Shown here piece after piece: positions 7,889-19,784 of a stretch of 64,000 nucleotides of DNA; position 1 is the first letter of the stretch, and every line of letters starts with the position of its first letter. Both the position numbers and the translations under genes were made by a program. This DNA is from Wenjunlia tyrosinilytica (GTDB lineage Bacteria > Actinomycetota > Actinomycetes > Streptomycetales > Streptomycetaceae), in the NCBI RefSeq assembly GCF_014646055.1, contig NZ_BMMS01000027.1, forward strand, positions 61,142 to 125,141, written 5' to 3'. Under the pieces are notes generated by a model. That model was not told the DNA's origin. It saw only the letters and a program-made list of their open reading frames with translations, and ran no database searches.

Positions 7889-7985
7889 ATTGCTACCCCT
7901 CGTAGGGGCGATGAGGACCCGACGTGTACGACATTCCCGCCGAGGACTACCACGCGTTGCTACCCCTCGTAGGGGCGATGAGGAC
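7889..7985 (-). CRISPR. Minimal CRISPR array, two repeats and one spacer
   Basis: Two 30-bp repeats lie at 7889-7918 and 7956-7985, separated by a 37-bp spacer (7919-7955). On the plus strand each contains CTACCCCTCGTAGGGGCGAT, with a CCCCT/AGGGG hairpin. They are identical except for the first plus-strand base (A at 7889, G at 7956). On the minus strand the repeat begins GTCCTCATCG and ends GTAGCAAC, a more usual 3' handle. In that sense the 7889 copy is the trailer-end repeat and carries the terminal mutation, as expected for the leader-distal end. The array would therefore be read away from cas2, in the same direction as the cas operon. Only one spacer remains. Confidence 0.9.
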
Positions 7986-8108
7986 CCCACGGTAAAGCCG
8001 CAGGCCGGAGGGCGGTGGGATGGTGGGGAAGTGGCCAGGATTTCAGCAGACCTCCGGTTGTGCGGTTGGACCCGGTGTGGTGCTGAAATTGGGTGTTGAA
8101 CCGCCGCT
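7986..8108 (-). promoter_or_regulatory. Probable CRISPR leader with inverted repeat
   Basis: These 123 bp lie between the cas2 stop and the leader-proximal repeat, where a leader belongs if the array is transcribed on the minus strand. They contain a perfect 9-bp inverted repeat, ATTTCAGCA (8040-8048) and TGCTGAAAT (8081-8089). It could be a leader element or a terminator for the cas transcript. No promoter could be fixed. Confidence 0.35.
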
Positions 8109-8378: not shown

Positions 8379-8738
8379 TTACCACCAGATGCGGAAGGGC
8401 TTGTAAGGGGTGCCTTCCAGGCAGCGTCGCGTCAGTGCCAGGGCATCGTGGTAGAGGAGCTCATCGTAGGCGACGGGGCGGCCCAGGGAACGGTGGGTGA
8501 TGGTGACCGCGAACGCGTCCCGAACCACCTGGACGGCAAGCTTGCGTCCGGCTTCACTGAGCATGGCTTGATTGGTGTCGCGGTCGAAGTGGTGCTCCTT
8601 GAGTTGCTTGCGGGCGGCCAGGCGCAGCAGCAGTCGCCCGGCGAGCAGGGGCTTGAACATCTCGGACAAGTCCAGGACGAGGGAGTGTCGCTGGCGCTCC
8701 ATGCTGCTGTGAAGGAACGCGATGCCGCTGTGCAGTGG
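8379..8738 (-). pseudogene. cas1: cas1, 3' fragment beyond the IS insertion
   Basis: In the minus-strand frame ending at 8379, translation from about 8738 reads PLHSGIAFLHSSMERQRH, then LVLDLSEMFKPLLAGRL, the C-terminal Cas1 region carrying the catalytic His (FLHSS) and Asp (LDLSEMFKP). It continues normally to a stop 6 nt before cas2. The N-terminal part of the gene lies about 1.8 kb away at 10517-11133, on the other side of an IS110-family element. The fragment has no start of its own. Confidence 0.88.
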
Positions 8739-8823
8739 GGAAGCTGAACGGAAAATCGACCTTCGGGAGGGCAGGCGGCAGCATCCGGGCCGCGTACGGA
8801 CCGGATGTCGGTGGGGCGAGTGG

Positions 8824-10152
8824 TCAGGCCGCTGTCGGGGTGAGGGCGACCTGGTGGCCGAGGGCCTGGAGCTGGCGGACGAGGTCGCGGGTCTTGCGGG
8901 CGGGATCGAGATGGCGCCGGTGCCGGTCGGCACCCAGCTCTTGGTAGGAGGCGTCCGGGTCGTTGATCAGGTGCCAGGCGATGACGAGTATCGAGCGGGC
9001 GGCAGCCACGAGGGCTTTGGCGTGGCCGCGGCGTTTGACGATGCGGCGATAGCGGGCGCCGAAGAAGGTGTCGGTGCGGGCGGCGGCGTTGGCGGCTTCA
9101 CCGAGGGCGCCCTTGAGCCAGGGGTTGCCCCGTCCGGCCGGGCCCGCGGTGTTCTTCGCGCCGGACTGGATGGTGCGCGGACATAACTTCGCCCACGAGA
9201 GGAGATGTTCGGGGGTGGGAAAGCGGCTCATGTCCGCACCGATCTCGGCGAGGATGATCTGCGCGGTGGTCGGCCCGATACCGGGGACGGCGTCCAGCCG
9301 TTCGGCCAGGGCCCGTGCACTCACCGGGGCGGTCGGCCCGTCCCCGGCGCCCGGGCCGTCGTGCGGGGTGGTGATCTCCTTCAGGGTCTGGGCGATGAGC
9401 CGGTCGAGTTCGTGGATCTGGCCGGTCAGATGGTCGACGGTGGACAGCAGCACCCCGAGCAGTCGTGCATGGTGGTCCTCGAACTGCCCCGTGAGAGCCT
9501 CGGCCAGAGCCGTCTTCTTCCTGACGAGACTGCCCCGGGCGAGCTCGGCAAGGGCACGGGGGTCGCGTTCGCCGGCGACCATGGCGTTCATCATGGCCCG
9601 CCCCGACAGGCCGAACAGGTCGGAGACGGCCCCGGACAGCTTGATCTGCGCGTCCTGCAGGGCCTTGTCCACGCGGTGCTTGCGGCGGGTGCGTTCCTGG
9701 ACGAACACGGTGCGGGTGCGGGTGAAGTCCCGCAGTTGCCGGACCGGCTTGGGCGGGACGAACGAGGCGCGGACCATGCCGCGTTCGGCGAGCTTGGCCA
9801 GCCAGACCGCGTCCAGCTTGTCGGTCTTGGGACGGCCGGGGACATTCTTCACGTCCCGCGCGTTCACGAGCCAGCAGTCGAGGCCGCGGGCTTCCAGCAG
9901 GTAGAAGAACGGTCGCCAGTACGAGCCTGTCGCTTCCATCACTACCCGCTCAACGCCCTGGCAGATGAGCCGGTCGCCGAGTTCCAGGATCGCGTTGGTG
10001 GTCGAGGCAACCGTCCAGACCTGCTGGATCCGCCGGCCTTCGACGGTGTCGTGCGGGAGGCGCAGGCGGACCATCCCGGACGCCTTGGCGATATCGATCG
10101 CCGCGACCCTGGCGACCGTTCCGTCGTCGTGGTCTTCTCTCAACTCCTCCAT
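8824..10152 (-). CDS. IS110-family transposase
   Basis: This 442-residue RNA-guided DEDD recombinase catalyses IS110-type transposition. The N-terminal RuvC-like domain shows AAIDIAKAS (Asp20), VVMEATGSYW (Glu) and a TDKLDAVWLAKL segment supplying the last two acidic residues. A helical linker follows. The C-terminal Tnp20 domain begins near LDAVPGIGPTTAQIILAEIG and includes TIQSGAKN, a likely site of the catalytic serine, and GNPWLKGALGEAAN. The length is normal and there are no internal stops, so the element may still be active. AGGGAG precedes ATG 10152. Confidence 0.95.
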   Translation of the reverse strand: MEELREDHDDGTVARVAAIDIAKASGMVRLRLPHDTVEGRRIQQVWTVASTTNAILELGDRLICQGVERVVMEATGSYWRPFFYLLEARGLDCWLVNARDVKNVPGRPKTDKLDAVWLAKLAERGMVRASFVPPKPVRQLRDFTRTRTVFVQERTRRKHRVDKALQDAQIKLSGAVSDLFGLSGRAMMNAMVAGERDPRALAELARGSLVRKKTALAEALTGQFEDHHARLLGVLLSTVDHLTGQIHELDRLIAQTLKEITTPHDGPGAGDGPTAPVSARALAERLDAVPGIGPTTAQIILAEIGADMSRFPTPEHLLSWAKLCPRTIQSGAKNTAGPAGRGNPWLKGALGEAANAAARTDTFFGARYRRIVKRRGHAKALVAAARSILVIAWHLINDPDASYQELGADRHRRHLDPARKTRDLVRQLQALGHQVALTPTAA

Positions 10153-10516
10153 GACGTACTCCCTGTTGCACCGGTGCGGGCGGGGCTGCCCGGGGAGCCT
10201 GAGGGGAACTGGAGAAGCTGATCGGCGTGCTCAAGGCGGCAGTGTGCGGCCCCTCGGACGGCTCCCTCACCAGACTCCTATGCGGGCTCACAGCCCAAAC
10301 ATCGATCGGCGTCGGCGGACAGCCCACGTACCGATTTTCACGCCCGCGAGGCGTCATCCGCAGTGAACGGCTGACTCCTATGAAGTCACGGAAGCCCGAC
10401 CGGCCACGCGCCGGACGGCATCGCCCGGCAGGCCGACGATTCCCCAAGAGGACAACGGAAGCGTCAGTCAGGCGGAGAGTCAGACCTCCGGGCGATGCCA
10501 TCGCCAATCCTCACTG
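10153..10516 (-). ncRNA. Candidate bridge-RNA region of the IS110 element
   Basis: This noncoding stretch lies upstream of the transposase, where IS110-group elements encode their bridge RNA. The 10-mer gactcctatg occurs twice about 100 bp apart (10273-10282 and 10373-10382), and many GC-rich stems can form. I could not fold it or identify target and donor loops, so the call rests on position and family knowledge. Confidence 0.35.
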
Positions 10517-11133
10517 TCAGGCGTACGGCGGTGAGTGTCCGGGCGTGGGTGATGCCGTTCACGTAGCTGATGAAGGCGTTGCTGGCGTTTTTGGGCGGGC
10601 GGCGGCTGCGACCGCCGAGCTGGAGCTACGAGGGCAGCTTGCTGTCCAGGACGTCCCACGCCGATCTGCGGAAAGTGCCCTCGGCACCCATGAGCTCGGC
10701 TCTGCCTGGCGTCGGCGACAGCGTTCTGGAGGACGGTGTGGGGGCGGGCGAGGAGCTTGCGGTCCAGGACTCGGCGGACGTTGAAGGCGGCGGCCTGAAC
10801 TATGTCACGCGCGATGGTGAGCGCGGTCTCGCCGTCCTGGGCCAGGCGGGCCTGGGCCAGGACGGTACTGCCGGAGGTGCTGGTGTCGGAGGTCAGTAGT
10901 GAGCCGGCATAGTCGCCGTAGTAGCTCAGGAGGTGGATGCTGACGCGGTGGCGGTTGAGCAGGGAGACGACGGAGGTGTTGATGTCGACCTCGGCGCAGG
11001 CGACGATGTCGCGTACGTCGGTGATCGGGATGTGGACGTTCGGAGCAGTGGCCCGTTCGATGACGAGTGACTGGTCCTTGCGGCGGATTCGGCTGGGGCT
11101 GGTCAGCCAGTAGGTACGGGTGGCGGTGGGCAC
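10517..11133 (-). pseudogene. cas1: cas1, 5' fragment with frameshift and stop
   Basis: From GTG 11133 the frame gives a normal Cas1 N-terminus (VPTATRTYWLTSPSRIRRKD, then the DIRDIVAC-like DVRDIVACAEVDINTSVV and HLLSYYGDYAGSL). Near 10700 the Cas1 match jumps frame: the catalytic-Glu segment ELMGAEGTFRRSAWD is in a different frame from NAVADARQ before it. In the new frame a TAG at 10626-10628 interrupts SKLPS and LQLGGRSRRPP, probably a former Trp codon. The match then continues through NAFISYVNGI and stops at the IS110 border. With the insertion, the gene carries at least three lesions. It starts 4 nt after the cas4 stop. Confidence 0.88.
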
Positions 11134-11137
11134 TGGG

Positions 11138-11636
11138 TCACTCCGTCCAGCAGTAGTCGGTGTAGCTGCATCCGCGGCACTGGGGGCGCGGCAGCCGGTC
11201 GGGTGAGGTGGATGCTGCGGCCACGGCCAGGACGGCGGCGATGTCGGCCGCGGCCTGTCGCGCCTCATCGTCGGTGTAGGGGTGGCGTTGTGTGCGGCGG
11301 GTCGCGGGATAGTGGAGGACAGTGCCTTCGACCGGGATGCCAAGGGTGTGCAGCCGGTGGCAGTAGTGGCGTCCCTGAGCGTGATCGGCCTCGGTCGGGC
11401 GGGTGGAGGACTTGACCTCGTGTACCCAGCACTGTCCGTCGAGGAAGTCGATGCGTGCCGCGCCCAGGTCCACCGGGCTGTCGCGGGTCTAGGTGGTGCT
11501 GTGGACCGCCTCGCCCAGTTGCACCCGGTGTGTTCAGGTGCTCCGGCCGTAGGCCGTGCAGGTAGAGCCACAACTGCCGGGGACAGTGGAAGAGGTACTT
11601 GATGTGGACGCCCCCGACGTCTGCTTCGTTGATCAC
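11138..11636 (-). pseudogene. cas4: cas4, frameshifted and interrupted by a stop
   Basis: Cas4 is an iron-sulfur RecB-like nuclease that trims and orients prespacers. The GTG at 11636 overlaps the cas3 stop, and the frame reads INEADVGG and YLFHCPRQLWLYLHGLRPE, including the first cluster Cys. The family match then continues in another frame as VQLGEAVHSTT, meets TAG at 11489-11491, and resumes as TRDSPVDLGAARIDFLDG and VHEVKSSTRP (nuclease motifs). It ends with CRGCSYTDYCWTE, which holds the last three cluster cysteines. One shift near 11530 plus one nonsense codon inactivate the gene. Confidence 0.87.
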
Positions 11637-14067
11637 AGGACCTCTCCGGGCCGGTATGTCTGTCTCGGTTCGCGGCGGATGGCCAGCAGGCCGAAATGAG
11701 GGTCGTAGTCGGCGTCGATGATCCGGACCTGGAGCGAGGTGTCGTAGTGGCTTTGTGCTTTGCTCCAGGCCGGCAGCGGGATCAGGTACTGATCGGCGTC
11801 CAGACGGCCTGTCGCCCTGTCGGGGCCGTGCTGGAGAGTCTGCTGGTACTGGTCGCGGTCGGTGGCCAGGATGGCTTCGGTGCCGTTGAAGTGCTCGTCG
11901 AAGCGCCGGGTGAGGTCGGAGCGGTCGTCAAAGGGCAGGGTGAAGTTCAGGAAGGCGTCCTCGAAGCTCGCGCCGTGGTGGGCGACCTGCTGTTCCCAGT
12001 GTTGGCCCCAGGGGCTGCGGTAGATCTCGTCGAGCCATTCGGTGACGGTGGATTCGCTGATGGTCTGTCCGTCGTGGCGGGTGAGGATGTCCCAGGCCAG
12101 CTGGGTCGGTTCGGCTTCGTAGACACCGTCGGCCCACAAGGTGCCGCCGCTGCTGCGCCTGGTCACGTATGCGGGCTGGTGGACGGCGACCGGGGCCGGC
12201 GGAAGCGCGGCGAGTCGGTTGATGCGGCCGAACCGCTGGATGAGCGGTTCCAGGTCCGCGGCGGAGGTGTGGCAGACGTCGAGGTCGAGGTCAAGGGAGA
12301 CCTCCAGGGCCTGGGTGCCGACCAGCAGCCCGGGGCGGCGGGGTTTACCGGCGGCGAACCGGTCGACGATGCCGGTCTCGATGGCGGTGCGGTCCATTCT
12401 CCGGTACCGCGAGTGGAGCAGGTACGCGGAGTCCTCACCGTGGGCTCGGCCGCAGAACGGCCGCAGGTCCTCGTAGAGGCTGATCGCGTCCCGGACGTTG
12501 TTGGCGACCACGAGGACGGACCTGCCGGAGCCGAGGTGGTCGCGGATCTCGGCACGCGAGGGGTCGTCGGTGAGGTGGGAACGGCGGATGTGGAGGCGGT
12601 GCCGCACCGGTGCCCATGTTCCAGGGGGTGCTTCCACCAGCGTGACCTGTCCCTCCAGGGCTTGACTGACCAGCTTCTCCAGGGCGCGGGGCATGGTGGC
12701 GGACGTCACCGCGACGCGTCCACCGATACGGTGCCAGAACCGCGTCATGGCCAGGATCATGCCGAGGCGGCGGGGGTCGTAGGCGTGCAGTTCGTCCAGG
12801 ACGAGGACCGAGTTGGCAGTGTCGGTCAGGATGCTGGAGTGCACGGGCCCGGCGAGTGCGCCCCGCAGTAGCTGGTAGGGGGTGCCGATGCGCAGCAGTT
12901 CCTTGAAGTTCTTGGTCGCCTCTGCACGGGCACGGGCACGGGCCTTGCCGGCCGCCGCGGCCCGGTTCTGCGTGCCGGTTGCGTCGACCGTGCCGTCGCC
13001 GGGGCAGCCGTCGGCGAGGGACCGGGCCAGGTGGTACGAGGCGGCCTTGGAGTGGGCGACGCCGATGCCGTCGGTGGTGCCGAGTGCTTCGTCGAGGCGA
13101 TCGGTCATGGCGTTGATGCTGGCCAGGTAGGGCAGGAGGTAGAACACTCGGGCGTTGCCCCCCGTGCGCTCCTTCAGGTCCTGGATCTGCCTGAGGGCCC
13201 ACAGCAGGGCGGCCTCGGTCTTGCCGCTTCCGGTCCACGACCGCAGGAGAAGGTTGCCGGTGGTCTCGGCGGCTTGCTGCTGCTGGGGGCGCAGGACGCT
13301 GCCTTTGGTGGCCAGAGCGCTGGTCAGACGGGAGGGATAGTCGGCGGTCAGGGGGTTTGTGGTGGCCAGGGGAGAGTGTGCCGAGGACAGGTGATCGGCC
13401 ATGGTGACGGCCCCGAGCAGCAGGACGGCGGTTGTTCCGTCTGGATCGTCCGGGGGCAGCGAGGTCTCCCACCGGTCCATCAGCGCGGTGAACAACCGGT
13501 GGGCAGCCTCGGCCAGCTCCGCAACCGTGATTGGCCGTCGGGGAGGGTGAAGGAGCAGGTGCAGGCGCCGGGCGGTGGCCCGCAGCCATTTCACCAGGTC
13601 GTTCAGGCGGGTCTGGTCGGCGGGGCTGAATTTGGCGGTGAAGTCCTCGGCCTGGTCCTGTCCGTACTGGTTGAACAGGGGTGGTCGGCGCGGCAGTTCC
13701 AGGCCGCAGGTGAAGGCGCGATGGTGACCGGCAACGGCGGCGGCCACCCACAGCCGCTCCTGTGGAGGTACCCCGGTCAGGAGCAGGTCCACGAAGCCGA
13801 GTGAGAGTACCTCGTGGCGTTCTCCCCACACGATGGCGCGCTGGTTGGTGTTGCCGATCATGCGCTGAAAGCCGTCGGACAGCTTCCCGGTGTCGTGGAG
13901 CAGGGCGGCCAGTGTCGCCCAGGTCCAGAACTGGGAGGGCGTGCCGGGGATGTCGCCGATGCGGTCCCGGATGTCTTCAATGCCTCGGCGGTCTTCAGTA
14001 AGTGGCTGGTCAGCAGCTCACCGGGTTGGCCGGCAGTGGTGGGGCTCTTGGCCCGCAGAGGGTTCAC
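11633..14067 (-). pseudogene. cas3: cas3, helicase-nuclease with an apparent frameshift in the HD domain
   Basis: Cas3 is the HD-nuclease/SF2-helicase that degrades DNA bound by Cascade. From GTG 14067 (GGAG upstream) one frame encodes about 28 residues, including LLTSHLLKTAEAL. The match then moves to a second frame near 13971-13990 (IRDRIGDIPG, then ALLHDTGKLSDGFQ with the HD pair) and runs open to 11633. The second frame contains Walker A WTGSGKTEA, a DEAH-type DELH, SATMPRAL and QRFGRINR, so the helicase part is intact. One base added or lost explains the split. A sequencing error is possible. Otherwise only a shorter protein from an internal ATG (13861), lacking the first HD residues, could be made. 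The early frame has a TTA codon. Confidence 0.8.
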
Positions 14068-14089
14068 GGCGGTTGCTCCGGATGTAGCG

Positions 14090-14743
14090 TCAGGCTGCGG
14101 TGGTCAGCTGCGCGGGGTGGACTTCGGGAAGCATGGCTACGGCCTGCCCGTCCGCAGTGGCCAGGCCGCTGTCGACGCGGACATCGGTGCCGGCGGGTGC
14201 GTAGCGGTAGCTGTCCCAGCTGAAGCGGTCCCGGTCCACAGCGATGACCGTCGTCAGGCGCATGGCACGTCCGGTAGCACCGGGCAGGCCGTCCGGGACG
14301 ACGGCGTGGCCCTGTCGGCCCGGTCCCGCCAGCAGCTCGACATCGCGGGCGGTGGCGGCAACCAGGTCCTGGCTGCGGCCCAGCCGCAGGGGCCACACGG
14401 GGCGGCGCAGCGCCCGCCGCCACAGGTCGATGTCCTCGGTCAGCCACACGGTCAGTGTGGTGCGCGCCAGGAAATCACGGTCCTTGATGGTGGTGTTGGT
14501 GGCGGTCCCGGGCGCTCCCAGGGGATGGTAGGTCTCCAGGTCGGTGCCGGTGCCCGCGGCACGAAAGGCCATGGCGAAACGGGTCCGCGCCGGTACGCGA
14601 TCCCAGCCCCCCGCCGCCGCGGCGAGCATGCCCGCGACCGTGGAGGGCGGCGGGCAGGGCAGCGTGACCTGTACTCCGGCGTACAACGGGTTGCGAAAGC
14701 TCACGATCGCGGCGTTGACGGTCACTTCCAGGGACTGGGGCAT
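14090..14743 (-). CDS. cas5: Cas5 (type I-B)
   Basis: This 217-residue Cas5-family RAMP protein caps the 5' handle of the crRNA in Cascade. The N-terminus has VSFRNPLYAGVQVTLPCPPP followed by STVAGMLAAAAGGW, typical of Cas5. AGGAA lies 8 bases upstream of ATG 14743. It sits between cas7 and cas3 in the usual I-B order, with an 80-bp gap from cas7 that contains a repeat-like sequence. No frame damage is seen. Confidence 0.88.
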   Translation of the reverse strand: MPQSLEVTVNAAIVSFRNPLYAGVQVTLPCPPPSTVAGMLAAAAGGWDRVPARTRFAMAFRAAGTGTDLETYHPLGAPGTATNTTIKDRDFLARTTLTVWLTEDIDLWRRALRRPVWPLRLGRSQDLVAATARDVELLAGPGRQGHAVVPDGLPGATGRAMRLTTVIAVDRDRFSWDSYRYAPAGTDVRVDSGLATADGQAVAMLPEVHPAQLTTAA

Positions 14744-14787
14744 GGCGTGTTTCCTTGGGACGGCAGGGAGTCTGGAGAAGGCGCGTG

Positions 14788-14807
14788 TCCCTCGCAGGGG
14801 CGATGAG
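14788..14807 (-). repeat. Isolated CRISPR-repeat-like sequence between cas7 and cas5
   Basis: The plus-strand sequence tccctcgcaggggcgatgag matches 18 of 20 bases of the array repeat core, including its hairpin and the flanking GATGAG. On the minus strand it lies inside the cas transcript, in the array sense, after the cas7 stop and before the cas5 ribosome-binding site. No second copy or spacer is nearby. Confidence 0.75.
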
Positions 14808-14822
14808 CGTGCGCGTCGGACG

Positions 14823-15881
14823 TCAGTTGAGAGGGTCGTCGAACCAGCCGTCGTGCTGGCCCGTCTCGATTTCGTCGGCGAACGTGTTCAGGACGACGCG
14901 CGGGTGGTCCAGGATCACCTGCTCGTTCTTGATCAGGGCTGCCAGGTCCGCTCGGGCCCTGTCCCGTTGGCCGCCCAGGAACCCCGGTGCCCAGCCGATC
15001 CTCACCGGTCCGTCCAGCTCGTCGGACCACGCCTCGATTTCCTCGGTCAGGATGTCCGTGGCGAAGTACGTCCCTCGTTCCCGTTCGCGCACCACGCGGG
15101 TGAACGGGTTGGTGCCGCCCTTGAGCGGAGCAAGGATCAGCAGGCCGGGTGTGCGGTCACCGTAGTGCGCGGACCGCTTGGCCCCGCCCTTGACGACTGC
15201 CATGGTGCGCAGCAGCACCGCGACCCGGCGGCGGCGCTCGCCGATGGACAGCCGCACGCACTCCACCGCGCGCAGCGTCACCCGGCTACCGCCGGCCTCG
15301 ACCACGGCGGCGGCCACCGCCGCGGGCAGGGCGGTCTTGGTGGTCCTGCCCCCGGTCTCGAACGTGCCCACGCGCGGCAGGTCCAGCAGCAGGTCGCCCG
15401 CCAGGTCAGCCGTGTACATCTCGTGCTCGTGGATCACCGGGTTGGTACCGGGCTCGAAGTCGCGGCTCATCGTGCCGAAGTCCGTGACCGGCTTGTTCGG
15501 TGCGACCGCGACCAGGGTGCCGGAGGCCAGCACCGTGTCCCGCATGAACGTCTTGGGCTCGCTCTTCCTGCCCTTGCCCTCCGTCTCCGCCTTGACGGCG
15601 ATCATGTAGCCGAAGAGGTCGTCGTCCAGGTACTGGTCGGGGCGGCCATGGGTGTACGCCTGTTGCTTCTTGCCTTCCCCGGAGCGCACCACCGGCGAGG
15701 TCTGCTCACCCGCGGGCAGGCTCTCACGCAGCCACCGCCGGGCCGCCTGTGCGGATACGTAGGGGAAGACCTGCTGCCCGATCTTGAACTGCTTCACCAT
15801 GCCGCGGTTGTCCTCACCGCGCCCGTTGTTCGGAGCACCCGCCTTGACCTGGATGATGCTCTGCCCCACCAGGAACGTCAT
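14823..15881 (-). CDS. cas7: Cas7 (Cst2/DevR family, type I-B)
   Basis: This 352-residue protein is the backbone subunit that polymerises along the crRNA in Cascade. The match is to the Cas7/Cst2/DevR group: an N-terminal SIIQVKAGAPNNGRGEDNRG, YLDDDLFGYM near residue 85, and a Gly-rich NPFTRVVRERERGTYF segment. The ATG overlaps the cas8 stop (ATGA), indicating tight coupling. No lesions are seen, so the interference complex could still assemble. Confidence 0.9.
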   Translation of the reverse strand: MTFLVGQSIIQVKAGAPNNGRGEDNRGMVKQFKIGQQVFPYVSAQAARRWLRESLPAGEQTSPVVRSGEGKKQQAYTHGRPDQYLDDDLFGYMIAVKAETEGKGRKSEPKTFMRDTVLASGTLVAVAPNKPVTDFGTMSRDFEPGTNPVIHEHEMYTADLAGDLLLDLPRVGTFETGGRTTKTALPAAVAAAVVEAGGSRVTLRAVECVRLSIGERRRRVAVLLRTMAVVKGGAKRSAHYGDRTPGLLILAPLKGGTNPFTRVVRERERGTYFATDILTEEIEAWSDELDGPVRIGWAPGFLGGQRDRARADLAALIKNEQVILDHPRVVLNTFADEIETGQHDGWFDDPLN

Positions 15882-17311
15882 TCCTCTCCCTCTTCCTCTT
15901 CGTCGCTTTCGTCATCCGTGCCCGTGGCACCGGCCACATCTGTGATCTCCTCCAGTTCCTCCCGCGATCCCGCGGGCTCCCAGCCCGCGTTGGCCAGTGC
16001 CTCCAGGACGGCGAAGACCAGCAGCCGCCGCCAAGCCCAGGAGCGCTCGTCCTCGAACAGCAGCCGATAGTCCTCCACCGGCAACAGCACCCGCGCCGTT
16101 CCCTGCGGCCGGGGGTGCAACAGCCAGTCCACGCCCTTGGAACGGAACCAGCCGTAGAGGTTGCCTCCCTTGGCATTGGCGCGGATGAAGTCCCTGAACG
16201 GCCCCGGGCGCGAGTCCTGCCCGAGCAGCGCGGCGAGCCGCCCCGCCAGTTCCCTGATCCGTCCGATGTCCTTGTCTTCCATGGTCAGCACCTCACGGCA
16301 GAAGGAGTACACAAGCGGAGCGAGCCGACACGTCCGGCTGGGAACCCGCTTGGTCCGGGAAACCTCGCCCAGCAGGTAGCCGACGGCGAACTCGACCACC
16401 TGCGACGGCCGGGTGAACGCCCGCCTGGCCAAGAACGCCTCACCCGGCACCTGCTCGGTGCCCTGCGTCGCCACCAGCAGTCGATATCCTGCACGGCGTT
16501 CTTGGCGCCGACTGGTGGATCGCAGCCACTCGGCAACCGGCTGATCAAGCTCCGACTCGGCCAGAAGCTGTTCCTTGTTGGAGTTGGACAGCACGATCAA
16601 CTCCACACCGCAGGTGATCCGCCGGCCGTAGGCGCGGACCGCGGACAGCACCCACAATTCTCGCGCGTACGGACCGGGCTTGGCGGCCTTGGCCGCTTCC
16701 CCCGCGGCGGCCGCACGCAAGGTGCGCTGGACAGCGTCCCGCGTCGCGGCGGCCAGGAAGTCCTCGTCCCAGGTATGGATCACCGCCGCCCTGCCGCCGG
16801 CCAGGCTCGCTCCGTATGGGAACGCCCACAGACAGGCCACGCACGGGTAGCACAGCGGTGTGCCTTCGTGGGCAGGTGCGGTGGTGTTGCGGAGCGCGAT
16901 GCTCGCGCCGAGCGGCATGTCCACCTTCCCGAACCAACCGCAGGCGGCACGGCCGCAGTACGCACACGGCGCCCCGGGCCACTGAGATGCGTCGGGCCGA
17001 GACCGCCACTGCTCGATCAAACGGGTGCGCTCGGCGGGGGACTGCTTGGCCCTGGCCGTGGGGTTGATCTTGGAGTTGGGCCAGAGCATGTAGCTGGCCC
17101 CGAGCCAGAAGCCACCCGGATCGGCGGCTTTGGCGACCCCGGTCGTGGCCACCAGGTCGCGGGTCATCCGCTCAAGCACACCCTCGAACACCTCACCCGC
17201 CAGTTGCCGCGGATGCGGGACGTTGGCGAGAGTGGACAGCGCGAACGCTCCGATCCGCTGGAGCGGACTCGCCGTCAGCACGACTATGTCCACCTCAGGT
17301 GCGGCAGGCAT
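15878..17311 (-). CDS. cas8b: Cas8b (Cst1-type, CXXC-CXXC) large Cascade subunit
   Basis: This 477-residue protein starts at ATG 17311, chosen because GAGGAGG lies 8 bases upstream. The same frame is open further 5', but that part overlaps cas6 and has no Cas8 character. Two Cys pairs, CAYC near residue 115 and CYPC near residue 154, form the zinc site of the CXXC-CXXC Cas8b1/Cst1 group. The C-terminus is highly acidic (EEEEGEE). Cas8 recognises the PAM and starts R-loop formation. This protein, with the Cst2-type Cas7, assigns the system to I-B (Tneap-like). Confidence 0.88.
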   Translation of the reverse strand: MPAAPEVDIVVLTASPLQRIGAFALSTLANVPHPRQLAGEVFEGVLERMTRDLVATTGVAKAADPGGFWLGASYMLWPNSKINPTARAKQSPAERTRLIEQWRSRPDASQWPGAPCAYCGRAACGWFGKVDMPLGASIALRNTTAPAHEGTPLCYPCVACLWAFPYGASLAGGRAAVIHTWDEDFLAAATRDAVQRTLRAAAAGEAAKAAKPGPYARELWVLSAVRAYGRRITCGVELIVLSNSNKEQLLAESELDQPVAEWLRSTSRRQERRAGYRLLVATQGTEQVPGEAFLARRAFTRPSQVVEFAVGYLLGEVSRTKRVPSRTCRLAPLVYSFCREVLTMEDKDIGRIRELAGRLAALLGQDSRPGPFRDFIRANAKGGNLYGWFRSKGVDWLLHPRPQGTARVLLPVEDYRLLFEDERSWAWRRLLVFAVLEALANAGWEPAGSREELEEITDVAGATGTDDESDEEEEGEE

Positions 17312-17382
17312 GACGTATGCCCCTCCTCGAGCAGCGGCCACGCACAACCGGTGCTGAGCCGCAGGACTGGATACGTTGACGC

Positions 17383-18126
17383 TCAGGCACTGATCCATCC
17401 CATGCCCGTGCTGTTCGCCTGGCCCAGACCCCATGAGTGCAGCGCGGACAGGGTCTGCGGAGCGCCGCTTAGCGCCACCTCGACGCAGGCCCCCGGCTTC
17501 TTGCCCCTCGCGCCGCCGGAGCCGGCCACGGCGAAGGACCGTTTGGGACCGACCCAGCTGACGCCCTCCAGTGTCACGTCGGGGTCCACCCCCAGCGTCT
17601 CCGCCTTGCGGCGCAGGTTGGCCTGTATGTACGCGTCCCACTCCGGCTCCCCGGGAAGGCACCAGGCCTGCCGCCGGGTGCGCACCCACGATTCGTCCCG
17701 GCCGGAGGACTTCATCACCACCGGAGTCGCAGTGCGGAACACCGCCTGGCCGGCTGGGAACGGGGGCGCCTTAACAGCCTCGACCTTGTCGAGGATGAAC
17801 GCAGTCGCCCCCCAAGCGAGTACGGGAACCGCTGCCAACGCCGCCGCCCAGCCCTCCACGACCTCCAGCAGGGGATTGCCCAGCTCCACAACCCCGGGCC
17901 CATCGGCCACGTACACCCCGCGCCGCCTCCTGGCCGCCGGGAACACCGGCGCCCCGTAGCCGAATGGAACCATCCCGTGCGGCCCCCACCCCGCCGCATG
18001 CAGGCGGGCCCCGAGAACAGGGACCCCTCGCTCCAGCAGGCCGTAGCACAAAGCCCGCCCAGGGGCCAGCACCTCGTCCCAGCCGAGTTCCCGGGCCCCC
18101 GTGTGGAAGGCCACTCGTAACCGCAC
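17383..18126 (-). CDS. cas6: Cas6, crRNA-processing endoribonuclease
   Basis: This 247-residue protein starts at GTG 18126 after a strong GGGGGGA. Cas6 cuts the pre-crRNA at the base of the repeat hairpin. The first strand (VRLRVAF) and the C-terminal Gly-rich loop (GLGQANSTGMGWISA) are Cas6 hallmarks. It is the first gene of the operon, and the 71-bp gap to cas8b has no promoter I can identify. It would process the minimal array and might also cut at the repeat-like sequence inside its own polycistronic mRNA. Confidence 0.85.
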   Translation of the reverse strand: MRLRVAFHTGARELGWDEVLAPGRALCYGLLERGVPVLGARLHAAGWGPHGMVPFGYGAPVFPAARRRRGVYVADGPGVVELGNPLLEVVEGWAAALAAVPVLAWGATAFILDKVEAVKAPPFPAGQAVFRTATPVVMKSSGRDESWVRTRRQAWCLPGEPEWDAYIQANLRRKAETLGVDPDVTLEGVSWVGPKRSFAVAGSGGARGKKPGACVEVALSGAPQTLSALHSWGLGQANSTGMGWISA

Positions 18127-18668
18127 GCTCCATCCCCCCTCTGCACCTCGGCCCCACCACGGGAGGGCCCGTACTCCCTTGGGCCTGATGTCAGTGGCCG
18201 CTGCGAGGCTTCGCATCAGCGGGCACTGTCAGCCCGCGTGGACGCAGACACTAGCCACCGCGGAGGACATGGGCGGAATATCACCAGAAACTCAGACACG
18301 ACGAGATCGCACGGTGCACAATGTCCGGTGGCTGCCTCACGAGGCGCGCCGATGGCCACCGGCTCGTCTGTGCAGTTCAGGAACAGTGTGGACGGGGTTG
18401 CAACTGGCTGAGTTTGTGGTGCTCCAGTCCTGCGAACGCGGCGTTATCGCCCCTGGGAGGGGCCCGTGACACGGGGTAAAGGCGGGCAGTCATGGACCAG
18501 CCCCGGGAATACCAGACGTCTCTGGTGCGATGAGGGCCGGCATCCGCGCACGCCACGTCCAGCGCCTGGTCGCGGCGGGCTCAAGGCAACAGCGCAGAGG
18601 GGGCTGGGGCCGCCACGGCGGGCTGTGCAGCATCCTGAGGCGCTCGGTTCGCCGTCTTGCGGCCCCCG
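18127..18668. other. Intergenic region upstream of the cas operon
   Basis: About 540 bp between cas6 and the end of the SpaB_C gene. It should hold the cas promoter, but I cannot point to a clear -35/-10 pair. It contains the repeat-like sequence listed separately at 18444-18462. No convincing coding frame is present. Confidence 0.5.
18444..18462 (+). repeat. Second isolated repeat-like sequence, upstream of cas6
   Basis: The plus-strand sequence ttatcgcccctgggagggg matches 16 of 19 bases of the array repeat read in its minus-strand sense. Here it is on the plus strand, so it points away from cas6. The match extends beyond the CCCCT/AGGGG hairpin into the ATCG flank. It is weaker than the copy at 14788 and could be chance. 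Confidence 0.45.
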
Positions 18669-19784
18669 TCACCCCGCCCACCGTCGCCCCCGGCGGACGC
18701 CAAAGGGGCCCCAGCCACCGGGCGGCAGCGTGCCGGTCGGAGCGGGGTGGGTGCGCTCTTGCGGCACCTGGTTGCCGGTGGCGCGGATGGGGCCGAGGAT
18801 TGCGTCGCGGGCTGCCCGGGCGAGCGCGGACTGCATCCGGGGTGGGATGTTGATCCGGTTCCAGTGGAAGATCACGTGGTAACTGAGGACGTCGCGTAGG
18901 CCGCGCTGCAGCATGCCCGCGCGGGCGGCGTTCCCGACGCTGCGTCCTGCCTGGCGGAAGCCGTCGGCCCACGGGGCACAGGCGGCGATCGGGCGGCCGG
19001 GGCCGAACAATGGGCCGCCGGAGTCCGTGTCGGCGAGGAGGAGCGGTTTGAGGTCTTCGCTCATCGAGGCCAGGCGTTCGGCGGCGACATCGTCGGGCAG
19101 GGGCCGTTCATGGCAGACGCGGTCCCATACCTCACCCTGTTCGTACCACTCGAGTCCGGCTGCGCGCAGCAACGTGGTGAGTAGCAGGACGGAGAGTTCG
19201 GGGCGGCCCAGCGCGGCTTCGTCGCCGGAGGCGAGGCCGAGTACGGCGCGGCTGTCGGCGTGGAAGAGTCGGTGGGCGGCGTCCATCGCGGGGCGGCCGC
19301 CGAAGGCCACCAGCTCGGGCTCGTAGATGCCGGGCCACCACCGGGTCAGGTGCCGCTCGGCGGCCATCTTGTCGAAGGCGTCGCCGAGGCGGGTCTTGAC
19401 CCCGACGTCGGACTGGAGGGGCAGGCGGAGCCGCCAGCACGGGTGCTTGCGGATGAACCACCAGCCGGTGAGGAGGCCGTCGGCTTCGGCCTGCTGAAGC
19501 AGGGGCAGTAGGTGGCGGGCGGCGGTGGTCTCGGCCATCGTCCAGTCGGCGAACTCCAGATAGATCTGCCACCAGTGGTGGACGGCCGCCTGCTCGGCGA
19601 GGGCGCGGAGGCCGGCTTGCAGGAACACCTCGACGGCATCCGCAAGGACGGTCGGCTCCAGTCCGCCTCGGGCAGCCGCCTCAGTGAGCGGGGTCCCGGC
19701 CAGGACGCTCAGGACGGTGTTCGCTGCCTGGTCCAGCCGCCTGGGGCCCCCGGCGTGGGCGCGAGTCAGTCGATCAGCAGGCAT
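18669..19784 (-). CDS. SpaB_C / thiopeptide-type RiPP biosynthesis protein
   Basis: This protein of about 371 residues starts at ATG 19784, just upstream of the lanC-fragment stop (overlap). An ATG at 19793 is an alternative. The region with HHWWQIYLEFADW, a WWFIRKHPCWRLRL segment and YHVIFHWNRINI matches the SpaB_C-like (thiopeptide-type bacteriocin biosynthesis) domain, which does the glutamate-elimination half of LanB dehydration of Ser/Thr in lanthipeptides and thiopeptides. The partner glutamylation domain (Lant_dehydr_N) and a precursor peptide are absent from the window. The C-terminal tail (about 45 residues after the domain) is Pro/Gly/Arg-rich. The gene is open but likely functionless without its partners. 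Confidence 0.75.
   Translation of the reverse strand: MPADRLTRAHAGGPRRLDQAANTVLSVLAGTPLTEAAARGGLEPTVLADAVEVFLQAGLRALAEQAAVHHWWQIYLEFADWTMAETTAARHLLPLLQQAEADGLLTGWWFIRKHPCWRLRLPLQSDVGVKTRLGDAFDKMAAERHLTRWWPGIYEPELVAFGGRPAMDAAHRLFHADSRAVLGLASGDEAALGRPELSVLLLTTLLRAAGLEWYEQGEVWDRVCHERPLPDDVAAERLASMSEDLKPLLLADTDSGGPLFGPGRPIAACAPWADGFRQAGRSVGNAARAGMLQRGLRDVLSYHVIFHWNRINIPPRMQSALARAARDAILGPIRATGNQVPQERTHPAPTGTLPPGGWGPFGVRRGRRWAG

What the first reader, a model, noticed from the sequence alone, without database searches (positions are those of the whole stretch)
14743..14823. Single CRISPR-repeat-like hairpin inside the cas operon between cas7 and cas5
The sequence at 14788-14807 shares 18 of 20 bases with the array repeat core, including the hairpin and the GATGAG flank, and lies in the same transcriptional sense as the array. 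It has no spacer partner. Two ideas follow. Cas6 might cut the cas mRNA here and so control Cascade stoichiometry, or the element may be a relic or relative of the repeat-containing antitoxin RNAs (CreA type) found between cas genes in other type I-B loci. The cas operon may regulate itself through it.
Basis: partly seen in the sequence, partly recalled or inferred. Interest (0 to 1): 0.65.

Follow-up and report, generated by a model that had tools for sequence, protein, structure and literature searches.

The report
Cas6-site-like hairpin inside cas mRNA
A copy of the core of a CRISPR repeat, the part that the processing enzyme Cas6 recognises, has been kept by selection between two genes of a bacterial CRISPR operon, which suggests that Cas6 also cuts or grips the messenger RNA of its own system.

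Summary
In detail: 14788-14807 shares 18 of 20 bases with the array repeat core, and shuffles give none. It is not a private oddity. In a clade of 19 related type I-B loci, 14 carry the same hairpin in the cas7-cas5 gap, while the rest of the gap diverges. The array is transcribed on the minus strand, so the element lies SENSE in the cas mRNA. It keeps what a Cas6 3' site needs (ATCG flank and stem, about 90% identity to each locus's own repeat) and has lost the 8-nt guide handle (43%). Best reading: a Cas6 recognition, probably cleavage, site between cas7 and cas5; cutting and its effect are inferred, not shown. It is not itself a CreA/CreR guide. Its guide matches the cas6 upstream region at positions 1-5, 7-11 and 13-17, with mismatches at 6, 12 and 18 and PAM TCG/TCT, across 14 loci. 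Window caveat: cas1, cas4 and the cas3 start are broken; cas6-cas8-cas7-cas5 look intact.

The parts
14788..14806 (-). E2, the element: TCATCG + CCCCT-GCG-AGGG hairpin, sense in cas mRNA; predicted Cas6 cut between 14789 and 14788
   Evidence: cut site inferred from the 22+8 nt split of I-B repeats
14823..15881 (-). cas7 (Cst2/DevR family, type I-B)
   Evidence: TIGR02585 3.8e-46
14090..14743 (-). cas5 (type I-B)
15878..17332 (-). cas8-like large subunit (start approximate); 67% identical to the protein at this place in plasmid NZ_CP109119
   Evidence: no family hit
17383..18216 (-). cas6, 277 aa; aligns in full with 12 other Cas6
7956..7985 (-). array repeat 1 (leader end): GTCCTCATCGCCCCTACGAGGGGTAGCAAC
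7889..7918 (-). array repeat 2 (trailer end, last base differs); one spacer lies between the two
7986..8108 (-). leader side of the array, between array and cas2, with the conserved GTAAA-type motif
18397..18404 (+). E1 psiR1: 5' handle GTTGCAAC of the CreR-like gene (upstream stem side diverged)
18405..18442 (+). E1 psiS: 38-nt spacer-like guide
18440..18469 (+). E1 psiR2: repeat-like Cas6 site, GGCGTTATCGCCCCTGGGAGGGGCCCGTGA
18282..18301 (-). matched part of the E1 protospacer with PAM TCG (18301-18299), 83 nt upstream of the cas6 start
8824..10152 (-). IS110 transposase gene of an element that splits cas1

Best explanation
The element is a conserved Cas6 recognition site in the cas mRNA, in sense, about 20 nt after the cas7 stop codon. 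It derives from the 3'-hairpin part of a CRISPR repeat. Most likely Cas6 binds it and cuts 3' of the hairpin, splitting the cas6-cas8-cas7-cas5-cas3... transcript. The upstream piece would end in a Cas6-capped hairpin, as a crRNA does, and could be stabilised; the downstream piece would start with the short cas5 leader, its ribosome site intact. That would raise Cas7 (several copies per Cascade) over Cas5 and the downstream products, and would make the operon respond to free Cas6. Shown: presence, sense, conservation, pattern of retained bases. Inferred: binding, cleavage, stabilisation, stoichiometry and feedback.
For: Same place in 14 of 19 clade loci, scores 12-16 of 16, each p<=0.004 against 2000 shuffles of its own gap. 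In 542 kb of operon DNA, both strands, hits of 14 or more are only these and a few repeat-like copies after cas3 (L014, L019, L020, L053). Retention against each locus's own repeat: TCATCG flank 0.93, stems 0.90/0.88, loop 0.44, handle 0.43, outer flank 0.23; this is the pattern of the psiR2 (3' Cas6 site) of the CreR-like gene (0.92, 0.95/0.84, 0.39, 0.42, 0.55) and the opposite of its psiR1 handle donor (0.21, 0.31/0.65, 0.12, 0.84, 0.30) (12 and 11 loci). Stem 92% paired, 3 of 5 pairs changed on both sides. mRNA sense settled by the leader motif and by the E1 guide direction. Tree: E2 restricted to one supported clade (100/100), 3 changes, as with one gain and later losses. Own Cas6 full-length.
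Against: Absent in 5 of 19 clade loci (L008, L011, L014, L016, L018) and, by the hairpin scan, from the more distant loci, most of which have no or a short cas7-cas5 gap, so it is dispensable. Loss does not follow loss of arrays: the genomes of L008 and L011 hold repeats elsewhere. The window gap does not fold better than shuffles (z +0.86). Covariation rests on two rows (L105, L012). No RNA data; cleavage, as opposed to binding, is untested. The outermost stem pair is lost in the window copy. The window locus itself is decaying (cas4, cas1, cas3 start).
Confidence: 0.55

Rival explanations
1. Cas6 (or Cas6 with Cas7) binds the hairpin without cutting: a built-in sponge, a translation block for cas5, or an assembly nucleus on the mRNA, resembling the solitary-repeat RNAs (Racr) of phages.
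For: A solitary repeat core with a lost handle cannot yield a normal guide; Racrs are described as solitary repeats that mimic CRISPR repeats (PMC10651486, abstract start seen).
Against: All copies keep a stem end compatible with the cut position of the arrays; nothing in the sequences suggests lost cleavage.
Confidence: 0.2
2. A relic: a repeat copy that landed between cas7 and cas5 in the clade's ancestor and is drifting.
For: Missing in 5 of 19 loci; not found in more distant loci; the window locus is decaying.
Against: Flank and stems stay near 90% while loop, handle and outer flank fall to 23-44%; paired changes in the stem. Drift would not spare just the Cas6 site.
Confidence: 0.1
3. One half of a crRNA-like guide (CreA/CreR type), with guide sequence in the flanking RNA.
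For: Such a gene exists in the same operon (E1), and one-repeat CreA is known (PMC9458426, abstract).
Against: The 8-nt handle 3' of E2 is not kept (0.43 against 0.84 in psiR1). No second repeat one spacer away was seen, and no handle-like octamer was noticed by eye in the cas7 ends.
Confidence: 0.08
4. A hairpin with no Cas6 role (mRNA 3'-end protection, translation coupling) that resembles the repeat by convergence.
For: It sits a median 20 nt after the cas7 stop (sd 6.8), as protective hairpins may.
Against: T5, A7, T8, G10 of the flank are invariant in 13 sequences, which a plain hairpin does not need, and they are the repeat's own bases.
Confidence: 0.05

Closest known systems
CreA/CreR ectopic repeats (psiR1-psiS-psiR2): PMC8501985 and PMC9458426 (CreA), review PMC12737573 (CreR)
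   Same: Degenerate repeats outside the array that keep nucleotides needed for Cas6 processing; located at the cas operon. E1 in this window fits the guide architecture and the 1-5/7-11 pairing rule.
   Different: E2 has one repeat, no kept handle and no guide, and lies inside the coding operon in mRNA sense.
Cas6-cut repeat-like site in a provirus of Haloferax mediterranei (Li et al. 2013, J Bacteriol; title seen as a reference; content recalled, paper not held)
   Same: A repeat-like sequence in a transcript that is no pre-crRNA, serving as a Cas6 site.
   Different: That transcript is viral; here it would be the CRISPR system's own mRNA.
Racr, phage solitary repeats (PMC10651486, abstract start)
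   Same: Solitary repeat core without spacer partner.
   Different: Encoded by phages as inhibitors; E2 lies in the cas operon.
Selective RNA processing and stabilisation of operons (PMC10667835, abstract start) and engineered Csy4 hairpins between genes (recalled)
   Same: Intercistronic cutting sets subunit ratios.
   Different: Those use host RNases or are man-made; here the operon's own Cas6 would be the cutter.

Membership tests
Cas6 processing site (type I-B repeat core) | Repeat stem and ATCG-type 5' flank in the RNA sense | tested here: met
Cas6 processing site (type I-B repeat core) | Cleavage 3' of the hairpin by Cas6 | not testable with these tools
   needs RNA or protein work
CreA/CreR guide RNA gene (for E2) | Conserved 5' handle followed by a guide | tested here: not met
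   handle retention 0.43 over 12 loci
CreA/CreR guide RNA gene (for E2) | Toxin gene (CreT/CreP) alongside | not tested
   no toxin search was run; the gap is only 79 nt
CreR (for E1, 18397-18469) | psiR1-psiS-psiR2 with kept handle and kept Cas6 site | tested here: met
   15 of 19 loci analysed
CreR (for E1, 18397-18469) | Partial guide match to the cas promoter region, with PAM | tested here: met
   own matches 138 against permuted mean 110.5, 0 of 20000; positions 1-5, 7-11, 13-17 kept; PAMs TCG/TCT are functional PAMs of the S. spinosa I-B system (PMC12231136). That the region is the promoter is inferred from its place upstream of cas6
CreR (for E1, 18397-18469) | Cascade-dependent repression of cas transcription | not testable with these tools
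   needs expression data
Racr anti-CRISPR RNA | Encoded in a viral genome | tested here: not met
   lies between cas7 and cas5 in 14 cellular or plasmid cas loci
Type I-B CRISPR-Cas | cas6-cas8-cas7(Cst2)-cas5-cas3-cas4-cas1-cas2 gene set | tested here: met
   cas4, cas1 and the cas3 start are broken in the window

The most novel reading that the evidence does not exclude
A natural Cas6 self-processing circuit: Cas6 cuts its own cas polycistron between cas7 and cas5, so that free Cas6 sets the Cas7-to-Cas5/Cas3 ratio and limits the operon post-transcriptionally, while a CreR-type guide represses the same operon at its promoter. This would be a natural counterpart of the Cas6-hairpin operons of synthetic biology.
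Probability: 0.5. Interest if true: 0.75.

Novelty: new variant of a known kind. Interest (0 to 1): 0.6.

Why it matters
How class 1 systems obtain several Cas7 per Cas5 and Cas8 from one operon, and how they sense free Cas6, is little known. A Cas6 site kept in the cas mRNA makes both directly testable with one 5'-end map and one stem mutant. It would also add a third use of stray repeats, next to guides (CreA/CreR) and phage decoys (Racr): editing the system's own messenger. In the library searches no listed paper was seen to describe such a site; subscription papers are mostly not held, so this is no proof of absence. The companion CreR-like gene, with a 5-5-5 matching pattern over 14 actinomycete loci, is itself strong comparative support for RNA-guided cas autoregulation in Actinomycetota.

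Tried and rejected
Antisense reading: I first took the array sense from the GATGAG end (as in type I-E) and read E2 as an antisense crRNA-like gene. The leader motif, the ...ATTGAAAC ends of Frankia-type repeats (L026, L062) and the guide match of E1 (no signal in the wrong direction: 109 against 106.9) overturned this. E2 as handle donor or half-guide: handle not kept. Link between E2 loss and array loss: rejected, repeats exist elsewhere in the genomes of L008 and L011. Thermodynamic support: none in the window copy (z +0.86). Rfam at E-value 1 over 14600-18700: only an irrelevant weak hit. E1 as a mere terminal array repeat: plausible as its origin, but its guide and target covary. A blind scan for E1 over the loci with usable cas6 regions gave 9 or more matches in 13 of the 19 clade loci, one of which (L009) is spurious because its cas6 is cut off by the contig end, and in L024 and L032 outside the clade; it missed L005, L006, L014, L015, L016 and L053.

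Rows left out: L006 from the E2 tables (gap identical to L005); L013 from the retention table (no own repeat found); L006, L009, L014, L016 from the E1 tables (no usable E1, or contig end); L005 from the position counts (weak match, joint best only); L017 from the Cas6 alignment (reading stopped at 19 aa); 31 of 84 loci were used in the tree. The clade was chosen by Cas7 identity of 64% or more from the 80 best loci kept of 303, plus one plasmid and two further genomes.

Full report
What was claimed and what is there. The 20-base core of the window's CRISPR repeat has three matches in 64 kb at up to three mismatches: the two array repeats and 14788-14807 with two mismatches; shuffled sequence gives none. 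In the whole 8.49 Mb genome the only further near match of the hairpin-plus-flank pattern is one on another contig. The element lies in the 79-nt gap between cas7 and cas5 of a type I-B operon on the minus strand.

Orientation. The direction of the repeat decides the meaning. In 106 arrays of the related loci, a GTAAA motif lies beside the GTCC end of the repeat in 64 and beside the other end in 1; the end repeat is the more degenerate one at the other (trailer) end in 57, at the GTCC end in 15, equal in 34. Repeats of two Frankia-type loci end in ATTGAAAC, the usual I-B handle (recalled; the 8-nt 5' handle and 22-nt 3' handle are given in PMC8501985, abstract passage). So the repeat reads GTCCTCATCGCCCCTACGAGGG|GTAGCAAC, the window array runs on the minus strand away from cas2, and the element lies in the sense of the cas mRNA: CTCATCGCCCCTGCGAGGG|ACACGCGC.

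Conservation. Cas7 relatives were fetched from species genomes (best 80 of 303), genome searches and plasmids. Nineteen loci with Cas7 identity of 64% or more form one supported clade (100/100). Fourteen of the 19 have the hairpin in the cas7-cas5 gap (L005, L006, L007, L009, L010, L012, L013, L015, L017, L053, L101, L102, L105 and the window); L008, L011, L014, L016 and L018 do not. Scores against the array-derived site are 12-16 of 16, with shuffle p of 0.004 or less in each. A scan of 542 kb of operon DNA found, apart from E2, hits of 14 or more only in L014, L019, L020 and L053, all after cas3 and repeat-like. On the Cas7 tree (31 of 84 loci) the trait needs three changes, as with one gain and later losses.

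What is kept. Against each locus's own repeat, E2 keeps the TCATCG flank (0.93) and the stems (0.90, 0.88), but not the loop (0.44), the handle (0.43) or the outer four bases (0.23) (12 loci). The 13 aligned copies have invariant T5, A7, T8, G10, C12, C13, G21, G22. The stem is 92% paired with both-sided changes in three of five pairs, from rows L105 and L012. The stem starts a median 20 nt after the cas7 stop (sd 6.8) and ends a median 45 nt before the cas5 start (sd 20.1). The window stretch alone folds no better than shuffles.

A second ectopic element. Searching for further repeat-like hairpins showed one upstream of cas6 (18443-18461). In most of the clade it is part of a two-repeat unit read away from cas6: a psiR1 that keeps mainly the handle (0.84), a 35-45 nt psiS, and a psiR2 that keeps the Cas6 site. 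In 14 of 15 analysed loci the best match of the psiS start in the region up to cas6 is a single place 59-122 nt upstream of cas6 (in L005 such a place is joint best), with PAM TCG (12, L005 included) or TCT (3). The summed score is 138 against 110.5 (sd 3.9) when guides are permuted among loci, 0 of 20000 permutations as high; the reversed guide shows nothing (109 against 106.9). Counted position by position in 14 loci, matches are 14,14,12,14,12 at 1-5, 3 at 6, 13,11,13,14,14 at 7-11, 1 at 12, 12,13,12,11,10 at 13-17, 2 at 18, and scattered beyond. Position 6 was left out of the score and positions 12 onward were never scored, so the 13-17 block and the gaps at 12 and 18 are independent evidence. 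This is the base-flipping pattern of a Cascade guide (recalled) and fits the published CreA rule of pairing at 1-5 and 7-11 (PMC8501985, passage). TCG and TCT are among the functional PAMs reported for the type I-B system of Saccharopolyspora spinosa (PMC12231136, passages), a member of the wider set here (L061). I therefore call E1 a CreR-like gene; repression itself is untested.

Mechanism of E2. E2 has decayed like psiR2, the repeat that Cas6 cuts to make a guide's 3' end, and unlike psiR1, the handle donor. It sits in the mRNA of the operon that encodes Cas6. The most economical reading is a Cas6 site in the cas mRNA. Cutting would leave a Cas6-capped hairpin on the cas6-cas8-cas7 piece and free the cas5 leader, favouring Cas7, and would couple the operon to free Cas6. 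Binding without cutting is the main rival. Shown: presence, sense, conservation, retention pattern. Inferred: binding, cleavage, effect.

State of the window locus. cas6, cas8, cas7 and cas5 align along most or all of their length to relatives; cas4 has a frame break and an internal stop, cas1 has a frame break and an IS110-type insertion, and the cas3 reading frame lacks its first part behind a stop. The array holds one spacer. So experiments belong in relatives with intact loci.

Literature. The library was searched. For CreR I read section 9 and passages of PMC12737573; for CreA, part 1 of 5 of PMC9458426 and passages of PMC8501985; of the reviews PMC8616872 and PMC10013973 I saw passages, which mention no Cas6 site in cas mRNA. 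The original CreR paper was not read and the H. mediterranei Cas6-provirus paper is not held.

Noticed in passing
window 18282-18469: CreR-like two-repeat guide gene divergent from cas6, with a PAM-flanked partial match to the region just upstream of cas6; conserved with covarying guide and target in the clade.
   Followed up: yes
L024 (Actinomadura spongiicola), upstream of cas6: E1-like guide and target outside the E2 clade (AGACTGGTTCTCCTG against AGACTAGTTTTCCTG, PAM TCG), so E1 may be older than E2.
   Followed up: partly
E1 psiR1 in L007, L008, L011, L012: psiR1 looks like a repeat whose loop has grown from 3 to about 18 nt (GATCG-CCC ... GGGGTCGCAAC).
   Followed up: no
window 8379-11633: Adaptation genes broken: cas4 frame break and stop, cas1 frame break plus an IS110-type insertion.
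   Followed up: partly
window 13860-14089: cas3 lacks an open start: a stop lies in frame upstream of the part homologous to relatives.
   Followed up: partly
L004 1380-1560 (own genome contig 32): A second copy of the array's trailer flank with one repeat, on another contig; looks like a duplicated piece of the array end.
   Followed up: no
L019 and L020, about 4.2-4.3 kb after the cas7 start: Repeat-like sense copies shortly after cas3.
   Followed up: no
L053 cas7-cas5 gap: A further weak repeat-like stretch (CCCTCACAGGGTGATCGG on the strand opposite to the mRNA) next to the cas5 start.
   Followed up: no
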